From Leucobacter soli (GTDB lineage: Bacteria; Actinomycetota; Actinomycetes; Actinomycetales; Microbacteriaceae), in assembly GCF_910593785.1 (NCBI RefSeq), contig NZ_CAJVAP010000003.1:9522-73521 (forward strand): DNA of 64,000 nucleotides. The letters are read 5' to 3'. Below are positions 199 to 63,369 of the stretch, piece after piece; within the stretch, counting starts at the first letter, position 1, and each line of letters opens with the position of its first letter. The notes below the pieces were generated by a model. It searched no databases and was not told the DNA's origin. It saw nothing but the letters and a program-made list of their open reading frames with translations. The translations under genes and the position numbers were made by a program.

Positions 199-3100
199 AT
201 GTTCAAGCAGATGGTCGGCGGCGGGAAGGTCGCCGGTGTCGCGCTCGCCTCGCTGCTCACCGCAGGGATGCTGGTTCCGGTCGCGGCGCACGGCTCGGCG
301 GCGGTCGAGGAGGAGCCGGCGGCCTCGCCCTATCCCACGACCACGACCATGCACCTCGTCTCCACGGGGGTGTTCTCGGCCGAGCGCGAATTCTGCGACC
401 GGCAGGGCGATGACATCCCCGACCTGGCGACGAGTACCGCCAAGGGCCGGGGCACCGCGCTCTGGGAGGACTCCGAAGCACGCAGGAACGCCGACAACGT
501 GGCGGTGCCGAACTTCACGAATCAGCCGTGGTGGACCAGCGTCGCCCTGGCGAACGGCTCCTGCATCCAGGACACGAACGGCGATGGCCTCGACGACATC
601 CTGCAGCTCGGAGCCGCGACCGCACGAATCTTCTATCTGCACCTGTCGGCGGAGAGCAGCAGCGATTCCGCGACGAATACCGCGGCGCGGTTCATCAGCT
701 ACCAGTACCCCACTGGCAACCGAGACTTCGGCATCACCGCGGCGGGGAGCGCGGGCGATCTGGATCGCGACGGCCACGGGGACTTCGTCGTGTCCCAGCA
801 CCTGGTGAACGCCGAGGGGCGTACCGGGAACGGGCGCCTCTGGGTGCTGGCCGGGCGACCGTCGCCGACCGCACCGGTGCTGCAGACGATCAACATGGAC
901 GATGCCGCCGTCGCCGACCCCGTGAACGTCGCAGCGGTGATCACCGGAGAGGCCTCGGGCGATCAGCTCGGCACGGCGAAGAGCGCGGGCGATGCGAACG
1001 GCGATGGCATCGACGATCTGCTGGTGGCCTCGCAGGTCTCGCAGAAGGCGTGGCTGATCTGGGGCAAGGAGCGCGGGGATGCGGCCCGGCAGATCGATCT
1101 GGCGGATCTCGACCCGAGCGACGGCATGCTGCTCGCAGCGGCGAGCGGCGGCAGCGGCTTCGGCGCTGCGCTCTCGGTGGTCGACGACGTGAACGGCGAT
1201 GGAACGCAGGACTACCTCTTCGGGCGGGCGGCGACCGCCCCCGCCACCGTCGGTACCGCCGCTGCCACGGGCGGCGCGGTCGTGGTGTTCGGCGCCCCGA
1301 TCACGGGCGGCGACACCCCGGACCCGGCTGTCGTGGACACCGCTGCCAAGACGGTGACCGCGGGAGGGAGCACGCGCGGCTACGTGATCGAAGCGGAGAA
1401 GACGGGCGATGCGCTCGGCTTCTCGGTTGCGGGTGGCGGCGACTACAACGGCGACGGCCGATCCGACCTGCTGCTCGGAGCCCCGGGCTTCGACCCCGTG
1501 GTCAACGGAACGGTCTCGACCGATTCCGGCGCCGTGTACGTGGTGTACGGCAAGGCGGATGGCGCCGCACAGCCGCTCGCCGAACTGAGCGGGAGCACCG
1601 GCTACCGCATCGACGGCGAGCGCGGCGCCTCGCAGACGGCGACCCGGCCGAGCAGCTGGGGATCCTCGGTCGCGCGAGTGGGGGACATCGACGCGAACGG
1701 CGTCGAAGACTTCGCCTACACCGCGGCAGGATACTCGCCCGCCCAGGCGGGATCGTACGGCATCGCCTTTGCGGCGCTCCGCGGCGACATCGAGACGCGG
1801 GCCTCGCTGGACGCATCGGTGAGAGTGGGCGACACCGGTATCGCGGTGAGCGAGCGGAACGACGTCTTCGTCGCCGGCGATGCGTTCGACCTGCGCAGCA
1901 ACCTCCGGCTGAAGACGTTCAAGGGCTACGCGGGCGAACTCGCATTCTCCGTCGACGGGCAGACCGTGGCGGGTTGCGCCGCCGTGCGGACCGCCGAGCC
2001 GGTACGCGGTGCCGTGCATCAGTCCTTCGGATACTGCGAGGCGGGCATCGAGATCGCCGAGTACGGCACGCACAGCTTCGGCGTCGGGTTCGACGGCGAC
2101 GGACACGTGCGAAGCACGGACACGGAATCCATTCCCGTGTTCGTGATCGACACCAGCGAGACCGCACTGGAGGTGCGTCGCACCGCGAGCGGCAAGTCGC
2201 TGCGGCTGACCGCCGAGGTGGCGCCGGTCTCCTCCGAGAAGGTGGTGAACGAAGGATCGATCGTCTTCGCTTCGAACGGAGAAGAACTCGCCGAGGTCGA
2301 CGTCTCGGGCGGCACCGCGGTGCACACGATCCCGCTGCCGGAGGACGGCGACTACACCTTCACTGCCGGCTACTCGGGCTACACGGTGGACAAGGCCGAC
2401 GACACCGACGAGACCTTGAAACTGCTCGATGCCTCGGAGATCACCGTGTCGTACCTTGTCGTCTCGGATCCGGCGACCGCGGCCTTCCAGCTGAGCCGGG
2501 ACACCGCGGAATACGGCGAGAGCGTGACCGCGACCGTATCGACCGGCAGCGCCGGTGCGGTGCGCTTCAGCGTGGACGGCGGCGACCCGGTCGAGGCGCC
2601 GGTCGTGAGCGGTGTCGCCGAGCATCCGCTCACCGGCCTGGGCGTGGGAGAGCACACGATCACGGCGGTGCTCGTATCCGAGAGCGGCGATCCGGTACCC
2701 GCGGGCAGCGCGATCCTGACCGTGACGAAGGCGAGCACCGCGCTCTCCGGGGTCCGGCTGAGCACGACCCGAACCGTCTACGGTGCGGGCGGCGTGACGG
2801 CGAGCGTGCGGGTCACCGGAGCAGGCACCGGCACCGTGACCTTCGTGAACGGCTCGACGAAGCTCGTCACGGCGAAGGTGATCGACGGGCAGGCGTCGGC
2901 TGTGCTGCCGAGAGCACTGGCCGCGGGCACGCGAAAGATCTCCGCGCAGCTCGCCGCGACCGGCACGCACCTCGCGGCCTCCGGCGCGGTGAACACCGTG
3001 AAGGTGGCGAAGGCCAAGACCTCGAAGCTTGCGGTGAGCGGCAAGAGGTTCAAGAAGAACGGCAAGCCCATCGTCACGGTCGCGGTGAACAGGCTGAACA

Positions 3101-12390: not shown

Positions 12391-14238
<1,848 letters not shown>

Positions 14239-14277
14239 CGCGGGCGCGCGCGTCGCGCCGCACTGATTTCACGGACC

Positions 14278-14311
14278 GTAGGCCCCGAGCGCTGCCCAGC
14301 TCGGGGCCTAC
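14278..14311 (+). terminator. Intrinsic terminator of pckG
   Basis: GTAGGCCCCGAGC (14278-14290) pairs perfectly with GCTCGGGGCCTAC (14299-14311) across an eight-base loop. ACTTTCTTC follows. It separates pckG from the tRNA gene. Confidence 0.85.
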
Positions 14312-14339
14312 ACTTTCTTCGTCCGTCAGAATGGTGAGG

Positions 14340-14413
14340 CCCCCCATAGCCCAACCGGCAGAGGCAGCCGACTTAAAATCGGCACAGTCTGGGTTCGAAT
14401 CCCAGTGGGGGGA
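14340..14413 (+). tRNA. tRNA with UAA anticodon (nominally Leu) but a short variable loop
   Basis: A complete 74-base cloverleaf: acceptor 14340-14346 with 14406-14412, a three-pair D stem, anticodon stem 14367-14371 with 14379-14383, a five-base variable loop 14384-14388, and T stem 14389-14393 with 14401-14405 around TTCGAAT. The anticodon loop CTTAAAA places TAA at 14374-14376, which reads UUA. The discriminator is A14413, and CCA is not encoded. Leucine tRNAs are normally class II with a long variable arm, so this class I body with a Leu anticodon is unusual. Identity by anticodon is Leu; the real charging is uncertain. Confidence 0.85.
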
Positions 14414-14519
14414 CGTCAGCTCGTTTGTAGGGTGCACAACAAACCAAGCCCCAGATCCTTGGATCGCGAGGCCCCGAATACCGGTCTCGAATGTCGGTGG
14501 CTGCTGCTGGAATGGGGGC

Positions 14520-16016
14520 ATGAGCAACCTCCCCGACGCCCTCACCGTCCAGCAGCGCGACGCGCTGGCTGCGGGTGTCGCCGCGGTCGAACGCATCGAC
14601 GCGATGATCCATCAGCTCGAGTATCTGAAGGCTGCGGGGCTCGCCTCGCTCTCCCGACTCGCGTCCCGTATCGCGAGTGATGAGGGGCACCCCGACCACG
14701 GTGAACTCGTGCATCGTGCCGTCGAGGCGGAAGTCGCGGTCGCGACCCGTACCGGGCAGGCCGCGGTGGCGTCGGCGATGGGGCACGCGGAGACTCTCAC
14801 GTCCGATTACCCGGCTCTGACAGGTGCGCTTCGCGACGGGGCCGTCTCGTTCAGACATACGCAGGTCGTAGTCGATGCCGGCGACATCATCGCCGAGCCC
14901 ACGGCACGTGCGGTGTACGAGGCAGAGATCGTGCCGCTCGCCGAGCGTATGACCGCCCCTCAGCTCCGGGCGCACGCGAAGCGCGTGGCCGAGTACTAGG
15001 CGGGCCGCGATATCGACGAGCGCCATCGCGACGCACGCCGTGGACGGGGTGTGCGGGTGATCGATCTCGACGACGGGATGGCGAGACTGGTCGCGACGAT
15101 CGGCGCGGTCGAGGCGTACGCGATCAGGGACCGTCTCGCACAGCTCGCGCACCTCGTGCAGGGCGGGCAGGGCAGGAAGCGCGGGCAGGGCAGGGCCGTG
15201 GGGCCTGGTATTCCCTCCGATCCTGCGGCAGATGATCGGACCCTCGCGCAGATTCAAGCCGACGTGCTCACCGAGCTGACGCTCGCACCAGCAGCACTTC
15301 CCGCAGCACTCCTGTCTCGCACCGGGGCTTCCACTCCCGCTGATGCCGCCGCTCCCATCACCGGCCGGGTGCAGGTCAGCATCCCCGTCCTCAGGCTCGC
15401 AGGCTCAGGGGACTCGGACGCCACGCCCTACGCCGGCCCCGCGGAACTCGCAGGGTACGGCCCGATCGATACCGCGACCGCACGCCGCCTCGCCGGCGCC
15501 GTCCTGGCGTGGGAACGTGTCCTCACCCACCCCGTCAGCGGTGCGGTACTCGCGGTCGACCGGTACCGGCCCAGCGAGGATCTCCGCCGCTTCCTCGGAG
15601 CACGCGACCAGCACTGCCGCTTCCCGGGCTGCACACGCAGGCTCGACCACTGCGACATCGACCACACCGTCCCCGCCTCCCACGGCGGGCCGACCGCGCT
15701 CGAGAACACCGGGCATCTCTGTCGAAGGCACCACACCCTGAAACACTTCGAGCTCTTGAGCAGCACAGCTTGGCAGCCGACCCAGCGTGCCGGCGGGGTG
15801 TACGAGTGGCGCAGCCCGGCCGGCAGGCGATACACCGATATCCCGACCAGCCGCGTAAGGTTCCGGCCCTGCCCAGCACCCGAACACGCGACTGCGCACA
15901 CGGCCGAGTCCCAACAGGGCGGCACCGACCCATCCTGCGACGCCGACCCATCGACCGGCACCGATCCACCGGCCGGCACCGATCCACCGGCCGGCACCGA
16001 TCCATCCGCCTTCTAG
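14520..16016 (+). pseudogene. DUF222/HNH endonuclease gene interrupted by an in-frame TAG
   Basis: The frame from ATG 14520 meets TAG at 14997-14999 and then continues in the same frame to 16016. The DUF222 helical domain straddles the stop: before it lies RAHAKRVAEY, after it GRDIDERHRDARR and VRVIDLDDGMARL, which family members carry as one stretch. The C-terminal HNH nuclease part is intact (DHCDIDHTVPASHGGPTALEN, then HLCRRHHTLKH). So a single nonsense change, perhaps TGG to TAG, splits a ~498-residue protein. A 3' fragment from GTG 15051 could still be made. DUF222-HNH proteins are multi-copy in Microbacteriaceae and their role is unclear. The short GTDPPA repeats at the end are low-complexity. 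Confidence 0.8.
15957..16004 (+). repeat. 18-base tandem repeat at the end of the HNH gene
   Basis: GGCACCGATCCA recurs at 15957, 15975 and 15993 with an 18-base period, giving a Gly-Thr-Asp-Pro-Pro-Ala protein repeat. Confidence 0.75.
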
Positions 16017-62112: not shown

Positions 62113-62123
62113 GCATAACGCAA

Positions 62124-62212
62124 TCCACGGGAGTCCGCACGCGGCGGGCTGAGAGGGAGCACGCGTGCTCCGACCGTTCAACCTGAACTGGATCATGCCA
62201 GCGGAGGAAGGA
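62124..62212 (+). promoter_or_regulatory. TPP riboswitch (THI element)
   Basis: The conserved pieces appear in order: CCACGGGAGTCCG (62125-62137), GGGCTGAGAGGGAG holding the CTGAGA pyrimidine-sensor bulge, and CCTGAACTGGATCATGCCAGCGGAGGAAGG ending at the ribosome site (key parts ACCTGAACTGGATCATGCCA and GCGGAGGAAGG). It overlaps the thiB Shine-Dalgarno region, so thiamine pyrophosphate probably blocks translation of thiB; no separate terminator stem is clear. Confidence 0.93.
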
Positions 62213-62217
62213 ACCCT

Positions 62218-63369
62218 ATGCGCACGCATACCCGCACACCTCGTTCGTCGTTCGCGCTCCCGCGACTCTCCCGGAGGGCCGCGGCCGCGCTGCTCGCCAC
62301 CGGCCTCGCGGTGGCCCTCCCCGCCTGCGCCGGTGATCCCGGCGCACCCGCCGGCGAGGGCGGCGGCACCGCGGAATCGACCGCGGTCACGCTCGTCGTC
62401 CACGACAGCTTCGGCGATCCCGAGGCCTTCAGCGCCGCTGCGAGCGCGGCGACCGGATACGACGTCGAGGTCGTCACCGCCGGCGACGGCGGCGAGCTCA
62501 CCAACAAGCTGGTGCTGACCAAGGGTGCGCCGATCGCCGACGCCTTCTTCGGCGTGGACGACACGTTCGCTTCCCGGTTGATCGACAACGGGGTGGTGGA
62601 GTCGTTCCTGCCCGATCCGCTGCCCGCGCGCGCAGCCGAGCTCGGCGCCCAGCTGGTGCCCGGGCACACCGGCGACGCGGCGAGCGTCTCGGCCTTCCCG
62701 ATGATCCCGATCGATCTCGGCGCAACCTGCATGAACATCGACAGCGGTTGGTTCGCGGAGAACGACCTGACGCCGCCGCAGAGCTATGAGGATCTGGCCG
62801 ATGCGCGGTACCGGGGTCTCACGGTCGTGATCGATCCGACCGCCTCCTCGACCGGTGCGGCGTTCCTCACGGGCACCGTCGCCGCCTACGGGGAGACGGG
62901 ATACCTCGACTACTGGAAGCGGCTCGTCGACAACGACGTGCGGATCGAGTCGGGCTGGACCGAGGCCTACAACGGCCAGTTCACGCAGGGCGGCGAGGGT
63001 GGTACCCACCCGGTCGTGCTCTCGTACAGCACCTCGCCGGCCTGGACGCTCAGCGAAGACGGCGAGACCTCGACGACCGAGGCGCTGCTCGGCACCTGCA
63101 CGACGCAGATCGAATACGCGGGCGTGCTCGCCGGCGCAGCGAACCCCGCGGGTGCGCAGGCCGTGGTCGAGTACCTCCTCTCTCCCGAATTCCAGGCCAC
63201 CATCCCCGAGACGATGTACATGTACCCGGTCGACGCCGACATCGAGCTGCCGGAGGAGTGGGAGCGCTTCGCCGCGCTGCCGACGGAGCCGCACGACCTG
63301 ACCCCGGCGCAGATCGGCGCCGACCGCGAGACGTGGCTCAAGGATTGGAGCGACGCCGTCGGATGGTGA
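62218..63369 (+). CDS. thiB: Thiamine ABC transporter substrate-binding lipoprotein
   Basis: A 383-residue extracytoplasmic binding protein. The signal peptide ends at VALPACAG, so Cys near residue 38 is the lipid site. The mature part follows the ThiB/iron-binding fold: TLVVHDSFGDPEAF, VTAGDGGELTNKLVLTKGAP near residue 85, GATCMNIDSGWF and DPTASSTGAAFLTGTVAAYG near 205. TPP-riboswitch control and the permease gene after it make thiamine or thiamine phosphates the likely cargo. GGAGGAAGG precedes ATG. Its stop overlaps the next GTG. Confidence 0.9.
   Translation: MRTHTRTPRSSFALPRLSRRAAAALLATGLAVALPACAGDPGAPAGEGGGTAESTAVTLVVHDSFGDPEAFSAAASAATGYDVEVVTAGDGGELTNKLVLTKGAPIADAFFGVDDTFASRLIDNGVVESFLPDPLPARAAELGAQLVPGHTGDAASVSAFPMIPIDLGATCMNIDSGWFAENDLTPPQSYEDLADARYRGLTVVIDPTASSTGAAFLTGTVAAYGETGYLDYWKRLVDNDVRIESGWTEAYNGQFTQGGEGGTHPVVLSYSTSPAWTLSEDGETSTTEALLGTCTTQIEYAGVLAGAANPAGAQAVVEYLLSPEFQATIPETMYMYPVDADIELPEEWERFAALPTEPHDLTPAQIGADRETWLKDWSDAVGW

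What the first reader, a model, noticed from the sequence alone, without database searches (positions are those of the whole stretch)
14340..14413. Class I tRNA body carrying a UAA (Leu) anticodon
Every stem closes properly, yet the variable loop has five bases. Bacterial leucine tRNAs are class II with a long variable arm, which leucyl-tRNA synthetase and the serine/tyrosine systems help discriminate. The gene also starts with C1 and does not encode CCA. It may be charged with another amino acid, act as a non-translating tRNA, or be a specialised decoder of the rare UUA codon, the codon known for developmental control in Streptomyces.
Basis: partly seen in the sequence, partly recalled or inferred. 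Interest (0 to 1): 0.6.

Follow-up and report, generated by a model that had tools for sequence, protein, structure and literature searches.

The report
Short-arm leucine tRNA reading UUA
This gene makes what appears to be the cell's only tRNA for the rare leucine codon UUA, but without the long side arm that bacterial leucine tRNAs are supposed to have; the same short-arm form is widespread in actinobacteria and in phages, and the evidence points to it carrying ordinary leucine.

Summary
In detail: window 14340-14413 (+) is a well-formed class I tRNA with anticodon UAA, a 5-nt variable loop, C1-G72, A73 and no encoded CCA.

It is most likely the genome's only UUA decoder, charged with leucine by its single LeuRS. 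The other leucine tRNAs (CAA, CAG, UAG, GAG) are class II. Of 46 tRNAs only the five with leucine anticodons combine U8, A14, A15, U48, GGNAGA and A73, the published LeuRS signals.

It is no oddity. Pattern scans with the anticodon left free (capped) gave leucine anticodons in 168 of 168 hits read, all six kinds. In 398 phylum genomes a class I UAA pattern is in 73, a class II UAA pattern in 180, both in none. In a closed genome (IMCC26103) every UAA tRNA found is class I; its UUA sites face Leu in 15 of 27 cases, other leucine codons in 65 of 93.

A foreign amino acid, a non-translating tRNA and a bldA-like switch are not supported. Possibly new is the pattern: the two classes replace each other at UAA, and in some actinobacteria UUR is read by class I and CUN by class II tRNAs. 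Charging and expression were not measured.

The parts
14340..14413 (+). class I tRNA-Leu(UAA) gene
14349..14365 (+). D-arm GCCC-AACCGGCAG-AGGC with A14, A15, G18G19, A20a (numbering mine) and a non-standard 13-22 (C-A), the layout of the class II leucine tRNAs of this genome
14374..14376 (+). anticodon UAA
14384..14388 (+). 5-nt variable loop ACAGU ending in U48 (A15-U48 Levitt pair inferred)
14413..14413 (+). discriminator A73
14278..14311 (+). terminator-like hairpin between pckG and the tRNA gene; suggests the tRNA is transcribed on its own
   Evidence: pattern match only; no sigma-70 consensus promoter found in 14230-14520
12391..14238 (+). neighbour pckG (GTP-type PEP carboxykinase), found beside the tRNA gene in 22 of 29 loci of the genus (own included) and not in the one order locus compared

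Best explanation
The gene encodes the cell's ordinary, and apparently only, UUA-decoding leucine tRNA, built on a class I body. The single bacterial LeuRS charges it, because bacterial LeuRS reads A73 and the tRNA core (A15-U48, G18G19, A20a, U8:A14) and does not need the long variable arm. It belongs to a conserved class I tRNA-Leu family that holds the UUA place, and in some lineages the UUG and CUR places too, in many actinobacteria and in phage and plasmid tRNA arrays. Shown here: structure, sole-decoder status by gene content, presence of the signals, leucine anticodons throughout the hits read, mutual replacement with class II UAA. Inferred: leucylation itself, expression, and the origin of the body.
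For: (1) Own genome: 46 tRNA matches; leucine tRNAs are class II CAA, CAG, UAG, GAG plus this class I UAA. Exactly these five of 46 distinct tRNA sequences carry U8, A14, A15, U48, A73 and GGNAGA together (one ARAGORN call in the window, tRNA-Gly at 1174-1261, was dropped as false). PMC9976931 (passages): A73, A15-U48, G18G19 and A20a matter for E. coli LeuRS, U8:A14 for the Aquifex enzyme; the long arm is not crucial and E. coli variants without it stay active. (2) One LeuRS over the family cut-off. (4) 228 distinct members: U8 228, A73 226, U48 226, variable loop 5 nt in 217; acceptor, anticodon and T pairs each stand in 214-228 of 228, all but one with several pair types (the script's score filter dropped none). 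(5) Class I UAA pattern in 73 of 398 phylum genomes, class II UAA pattern in 180 of 398, overlap empty. (6) Closed genome IMCC26103: 38 tRNAs found; UAA x2 and CAA class I, UAG and GAG class II; 45 of 198 leucine codons in 8 kb are UUA; UUA sites face Leu in 9 of 14 (Mfd), 1 of 4 (enolase), 3 of 6 (Ppx), 2 of 3 (MazG), together 15 of 27, other leucine codons 65 of 93. [quoted passage not shown]
Against: No charging, expression or proteome data. The pattern fixes A14, A15, G18G19, A20a and A22, so these are not independent conservation. A full viral scan for a base other than A at position 35 found 11 stretches: Gln(UUG) x4, His(GUG) and Asn(GUU) tRNAs with this D-arm, two with an 8-nt anticodon loop, three not called as tRNA; the six named ones have a non-A discriminator by inspection. 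Two of 228 members do not read as A73, both from the genus itself (L064, L071), and two lack U48. At 12 of 27 UUA sites the homologue has another residue (V 3, I 2, M 2, Y 2, E, T, R), a lower Leu share than at other leucine codons (15 of 27 against 65 of 93, not tested for significance). The genome is a draft (98.7% complete). The class II pattern is loose: its reversed control hit 4 of 398 genomes, the class I control none. PMC4932002 (passages) counts CAA among anticodons that might misread UUA.
Confidence: 0.92

Rival explanations
1. The tRNA is charged with an amino acid other than leucine and recodes UUA, fully or in part.
For: It lacks the class II arm of bacterial leucine tRNAs and has C1-G72, a pair seen in this genome's proline tRNAs; UUA is very rare, so recoding would be tolerable. 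In the closed relative UUA sites face Leu less often than other leucine codons do (15 of 27 against 65 of 93).
Against: 168 of 168 free-anticodon hits read are leucine; LeuRS signals intact; UUA sites in IMCC26103 face Leu, Ile, Val or Met in 22 of 27 cases, Leu by far the commonest; no UUA reassignment in the abstract of a 250,000-genome screen. Proline tRNAs here have G15 and C48, this one A15 and U48.
Confidence: 0.03
2. A non-translating or decayed tRNA gene.
For: No encoded CCA; no UUA in 41 called ORFs of the window.
Against: Full-length high-scoring match; matches at E below 1e-18 in 35 of 36 genus relatives, the exception being 72% complete; stems kept by many pair types; only UUA decoder found, with an in-frame UUA in ligA between its conserved domains. 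Some relatives do encode CCA.
Confidence: 0.02
3. A bldA-like developmental switch working through scarce UUA codons.
For: UUA is the rarest codon: 46 of 249,560 in a lax ORF set, 16 of 196,645 in a strict one; one gene copy.
Against: UUA/UUG against CUA/CUG is 0.051 against 0.028 or 0.027 against 0.015, so no special avoidance; UUA in ligA; the Streptomyces-like family f21 has the class II UAA pattern in 23 of 23 genomes and the class I pattern in none (family name inferred). PMC4255298 (passages) says the developmental significance of bldA may not extend beyond Streptomycineae.
Confidence: 0.05
4. Origin by transfer: the class I leucine body arose in phage tRNA arrays and replaced the chromosomal class II UAA gene, rather than losing its arm in place. 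(About origin; compatible with the best explanation of function.)
For: All six leucine anticodons occur in viral contigs; class I and II occur in different species of one genus (g83: G197 and G114; g135: G190 and G204).
Against: pckG linkage in 22 of 29 genus loci speaks for long vertical inheritance there; the D-arm keeps the layout of class II leucine tRNAs; no tree was built.
Confidence: 0.3

Closest known systems
Bacterial class II tRNA-Leu(UAA), for example bldA of Streptomyces
   Same: UAA anticodon and UUA decoding; the own genome's class II leucine tRNAs share A73, A14, A15, U48 and the GGNAGA D-loop with it
   Different: 5-nt variable loop instead of a long arm; different acceptor and D-stem; no sign of a regulatory switch
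Human mitochondrial tRNA-Leu(UUR)
   Same: leucine tRNA for UUR codons without a long variable arm; identity by A73 and A14 (PMC9976931, passages)
   Different: mitochondrial, charged by the mitochondrial LeuRS, weak anticodon stem; no homology claimed
tRNA-Leu(TAG) with short variable loop in a mobile mycobacterial tRNA cluster (PMC6582537, 2019, passages)
   Same: leucine tRNA with a short variable loop in an actinobacterium
   Different: extra copy in a tRNA cluster beside a normal UAG gene; here the sole chromosomal UUA decoder. Its sequence was not seen or compared
Streptomyces hybrid tRNA-Pro with alanine anticodon, charged by ProRSx (recalled, no call)
   Same: actinobacterial tRNA whose body and anticodon seem to disagree
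   Different: that one mistranslates with a duplicate synthetase; here one LeuRS and the signals agree with leucine

Membership tests
tRNA (Rfam RF00005), class I | cloverleaf with a 4-5 nt variable loop | tested here: met
   one D-stem position (13-22) is C-A
bacterial tRNA-Leu, class II | long variable arm of ten or more nt | tested here: not met
   5 nt; own class II leucine tRNAs have 13-17
substrate of bacterial LeuRS | A73, A15-U48, G18G19, A20a (E. coli) and U8:A14 (Aquifex) | tested here: met
   letters present, against PMC9976931 (passages); the tertiary pairing is inferred
substrate of bacterial LeuRS | is leucylated | not testable with these tools
   needs biochemistry
sole UUA decoder | no other UAA-anticodon tRNA in the genome | tested here: met
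   46 matches read; class II UAA pattern absent; genome 98.7% complete
class I tRNA-Leu family as described here | AGCCCAA-N or NN-GGNAGAGG D-arm, short variable loop ending in U48, A73, leucine anticodon | tested here: met
bldA-like regulatory tRNA | UUA avoided and confined to dispensable genes | tested here: not met
   no excess avoidance and UUA in ligA; 855 kb of 2.87 Mb examined with a home-made ORF caller
bldA-like regulatory tRNA | growth-phase dependent accumulation | not testable with these tools
   no expression data

The most novel reading that the evidence does not exclude
Bacterial leucine tRNAs come in two interchangeable structural classes. In some actinobacteria the UUR codons are read only by class I leucine tRNAs while class II tRNAs keep the CUN codons, so one LeuRS serves two tRNA architectures; the short form has apparently replaced the long one more than once, even within a genus, and phages carry it for all six leucine anticodons. 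This general rule was not found in the open papers searched here (nine searches; most listed papers were not opened).
Probability: 0.55. Interest if true: 0.65.

Novelty: new variant of a known kind. Interest (0 to 1): 0.5.

Why it matters
A review of unusual tRNAs still places tRNA-Leu in class II (PMC7609411, passages). A widespread natural leucine tRNA without the arm is a ready test of what LeuRS needs. It also matters for tRNA classifiers that treat a missing arm as a warning sign (tRNAscan-SE 2.0 does so for a human and a fungal case, PMC8450103, passages), and it offers close relatives that differ in the class of their UUA tRNA. It puts bldA in context: Streptomyces-like genomes have the class II form where many other actinobacteria have the short one; which came first is not shown here.

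Tried and rejected
A different anticodon reading: ARAGORN and Rfam agree on the cloverleaf, and UAA sits in a 7-nt loop. A hidden class II UAA gene in the own genome: none among 46 matches, none by pattern. UUA sites in pckG across the genus: no UUA codon there, so uninformative. The UUA in own ligA: it lies just outside the stretches that the solved homologues align, so it shows use but not meaning. Similarity over 24 non-helix positions: Leu(CAA) is nearest (21 of 24), but Tyr, Trp, Thr, Lys and Gly reach 19 and Leu(UAG) only 18, so this crude count does not settle the origin. The 145 genomes with neither pattern: 80 of them were searched again with a looser class I pattern, 13 matched, six of these checked by ARAGORN as short tRNA-Leu(taa); the other 67 of the 80, and 65 not searched again, stay unresolved, so class I is at least 86 of 398. 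A mycobacterial class I Leu(CAA) as query: 293 phage records matched, 25 rows shown, and the phages with tRNA-Leu-CAA named in PMC10865867 (passages) were not among those rows.

Full report
What is there. Window 14340-14413 (+) is a complete class I tRNA gene with anticodon UAA. It has C1-G72, a 9-nt D-loop AACCGGCAG, a 5-nt variable loop ACAGU, A73 and no CCA. It lies 3' of pckG, behind a terminator-like hairpin at 14278-14311; no sigma-70 consensus promoter was found in 14230-14520. pckG lies near the tRNA gene in 22 of 29 loci of the genus, own included (the 30th locus, L066, is from another genus of the order and has none within the 1.5 kb held).

Gene content. The draft genome (2.87 Mb, 98.7% complete) has 46 tRNA matches. 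Its leucine tRNAs are class II for CAA, CAG, UAG and GAG (variable arms of 13-17 nt) and this class I gene for UAA. No class II UAA tRNA was seen. By standard decoding rules a C34 anticodon does not pair with the A of UUA, although PMC4932002 (passages) counts CAA among possible misreaders; so UUA decoding rests on this gene. There is one LeuRS over the family cut-off (the weaker hits fit related synthetases, not checked).

Why leucine. PMC9976931 (passages read) says that E. coli LeuRS relies on A73, A15-U48, G18G19 and A20a, that the long arm is not crucial and variants without it stay active, and that U8:A14 matters for the Aquifex enzyme. Of 46 distinct tRNA sequences of this genome exactly five carry U8, A14, A15, U48, A73 and GGNAGA together: the four class II leucine tRNAs and this one. 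Trp and Gln share A15 and U48 but not A73.

The family. A DNA pattern for the D-arm, the T-loop and the short distance between them, with the anticodon left free, was run on IMG/VR and on the GTDB species genomes. Viral: 85 of 85 hits have leucine anticodons. Genomes: 83 of 83, in Nocardia, Gordonia, Rhodococcus, Mycobacterium, Corynebacterium, Microbacterium, Amycolatopsis, Nonomuraea and others, and now and then in other phyla, several of these in dense tRNA clusters. Against this, a viral scan for a base other than A at position 35, which was not cut short, found 11 stretches: Gln(UUG) in four, His and Asn in one each, all six with a discriminator other than A by inspection, two with an 8-nt anticodon loop, and three not called as tRNA by ARAGORN. 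A scan for A35 followed by a pyrimidine found none. Among 228 distinct members drawn from all these sources plus relatives, A73 stands in 226, U48 in 226, U8 in 228, and every acceptor, anticodon and T pair is kept in 214-228 of 228, all but one by several pair types (no member was lost to the script's score filter). A14, A15, G18G19, A20a and A22 were part of the pattern and count for nothing here.

Distribution. 35 of 36 genus relatives have a DNA match at E below 1e-18, and 20 of 23 other order members one at 1.1e-9 or better. Of the genus, 28 relatives' loci were read and all carry UAA; of 20 further loci fetched from the order, 16 read UAA and 4 CAA. In 398 phylum genomes the strict class I UAA pattern is in 73 (reversed control 0) and a class II UAA pattern in 180 (reversed control in 4 genomes). 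The two sets do not overlap, where about 33 shared genomes would be expected if independent; related genomes are not independent, so this figure is only a guide. Four of four class II loci checked are called tRNA-Leu(taa) of 83-88 nt. All 23 genomes of family f21, which I take for Streptomycetaceae from size and sequence, have the class II pattern; 11 of 11 of the own family and 22 of 24 of f22 have the class I pattern. Of 145 genomes with neither, 80 were searched with a looser class I pattern and 13 matched. Two genera hold both states in different species.

A closed genome as test. For Actinobacteria bacterium IMCC26103 (CP015604.1, titled complete) 38 tRNA genes were found; UAA (two) and CAA (one) are class I, UAG and GAG class II. 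UUA makes up 45 of 198 leucine codons in 8 kb. I aligned four of its proteins with the best solved homologue each. UUA sites face Leu in 9 of 14 (Mfd, Mycobacterium smegmatis; the rest V 2, M, E, Y), 1 of 4 (enolase; I, V, I), 3 of 6 (Ppx; Y, T, M) and 2 of 3 (MazG; R), together 15 of 27; other leucine codons of the same proteins face Leu in 65 of 93. The UUA share is somewhat lower, but Leu is by far the commonest residue and 22 of 27 are L, I, V or M. So UUA most likely means leucine there, and only class I tRNAs were found to read it. In a Corynebacterium (L341) and a Mycobacterium (L373) draft all 16 tRNA matches of 80 nt or more were read: the leucine ones are UAG, CAG and GAG; the UAA tRNA is class I in both, and CAA is class I in the Mycobacterium (the Corynebacterium CAA gene was not fetched). 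PMC8629427 (abstract) names only arginine codons as new sense reassignments in bacteria.

Special role? In 855 kb, 671 ORFs of a lax home-made set hold 46 UUA codons of 24,250 leucine codons, in 41 ORFs, some of which are probably not genes; a strict set of 472 ORFs holds 16 of 19,694. The window's 41 ORFs, chosen for high GC3, hold none of 1,620, and no window ORF of the lax set has one either. UUA/UUG against CUA/CUG is 0.051 against 0.028 or 0.027 against 0.015, so UUA is not avoided beyond composition. ligA carries one between conserved domains, which argues for need in normal growth.

Literature. Nine searches of the open library, with passages read in some of the papers listed, gave one explicit report of a short-arm bacterial leucine tRNA, an extra tRNA-Leu(TAG) in a mycobacterial tRNA cluster (PMC6582537, passages). 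[quoted passage not shown] PMC7609411 (passages) lists tRNA-Leu in class II. Subscription papers and tRNA databases could not be searched, so prior notice there is quite possible, the genes being present in mycobacteria.

Verdict. Real and unusual by the textbook, but functionally ordinary: a leucine tRNA on a class I body. The surprise is how general it is.

Noticed in passing
window 14520-16016 (+): A DUF222 gene directly downstream of the tRNA is split by an in-frame stop codon; no match to it in the short flanks held of the 29 other loci compared (28 genus, 1 order).
   Followed up: partly
genus genomes G004:C1:961848-961883 and G033:C1:3333672-3333708: Copies of the tRNA's 3' half (94% and 92% identical) lie about 42 kb from the intact gene, as if it were an attachment site of integrated elements.
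   Followed up: no
window 62117-62226 (+): TPP riboswitch, 56.1 bits, at the start of a solute-binding protein gene.
   Followed up: partly
window 1174-1261 (-): ARAGORN calls an 88-nt tRNA-Gly(gcc) that Rfam does not report; probably false.
   Followed up: partly
L289, L291, L296, L297 (Gln), L295 (His), L287 (Asn): Viral tRNAs with the same D-arm but other anticodons and, by inspection, a discriminator other than A.
   Followed up: partly
L288 and L293: Viral tRNA with this body and an 8-nt anticodon loop, read by ARAGORN as a four-base anticodon ttaa.
   Followed up: no
L064 and L071: Two genus members read as C1-A72 and C73, apparently one G fewer on the 3' acceptor strand.
   Followed up: no
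L079 (Curtobacterium plasmid): A plasmid carries a class I tRNA-Leu(UAA) among other tRNA genes near a MobF relaxase gene.
   Followed up: no
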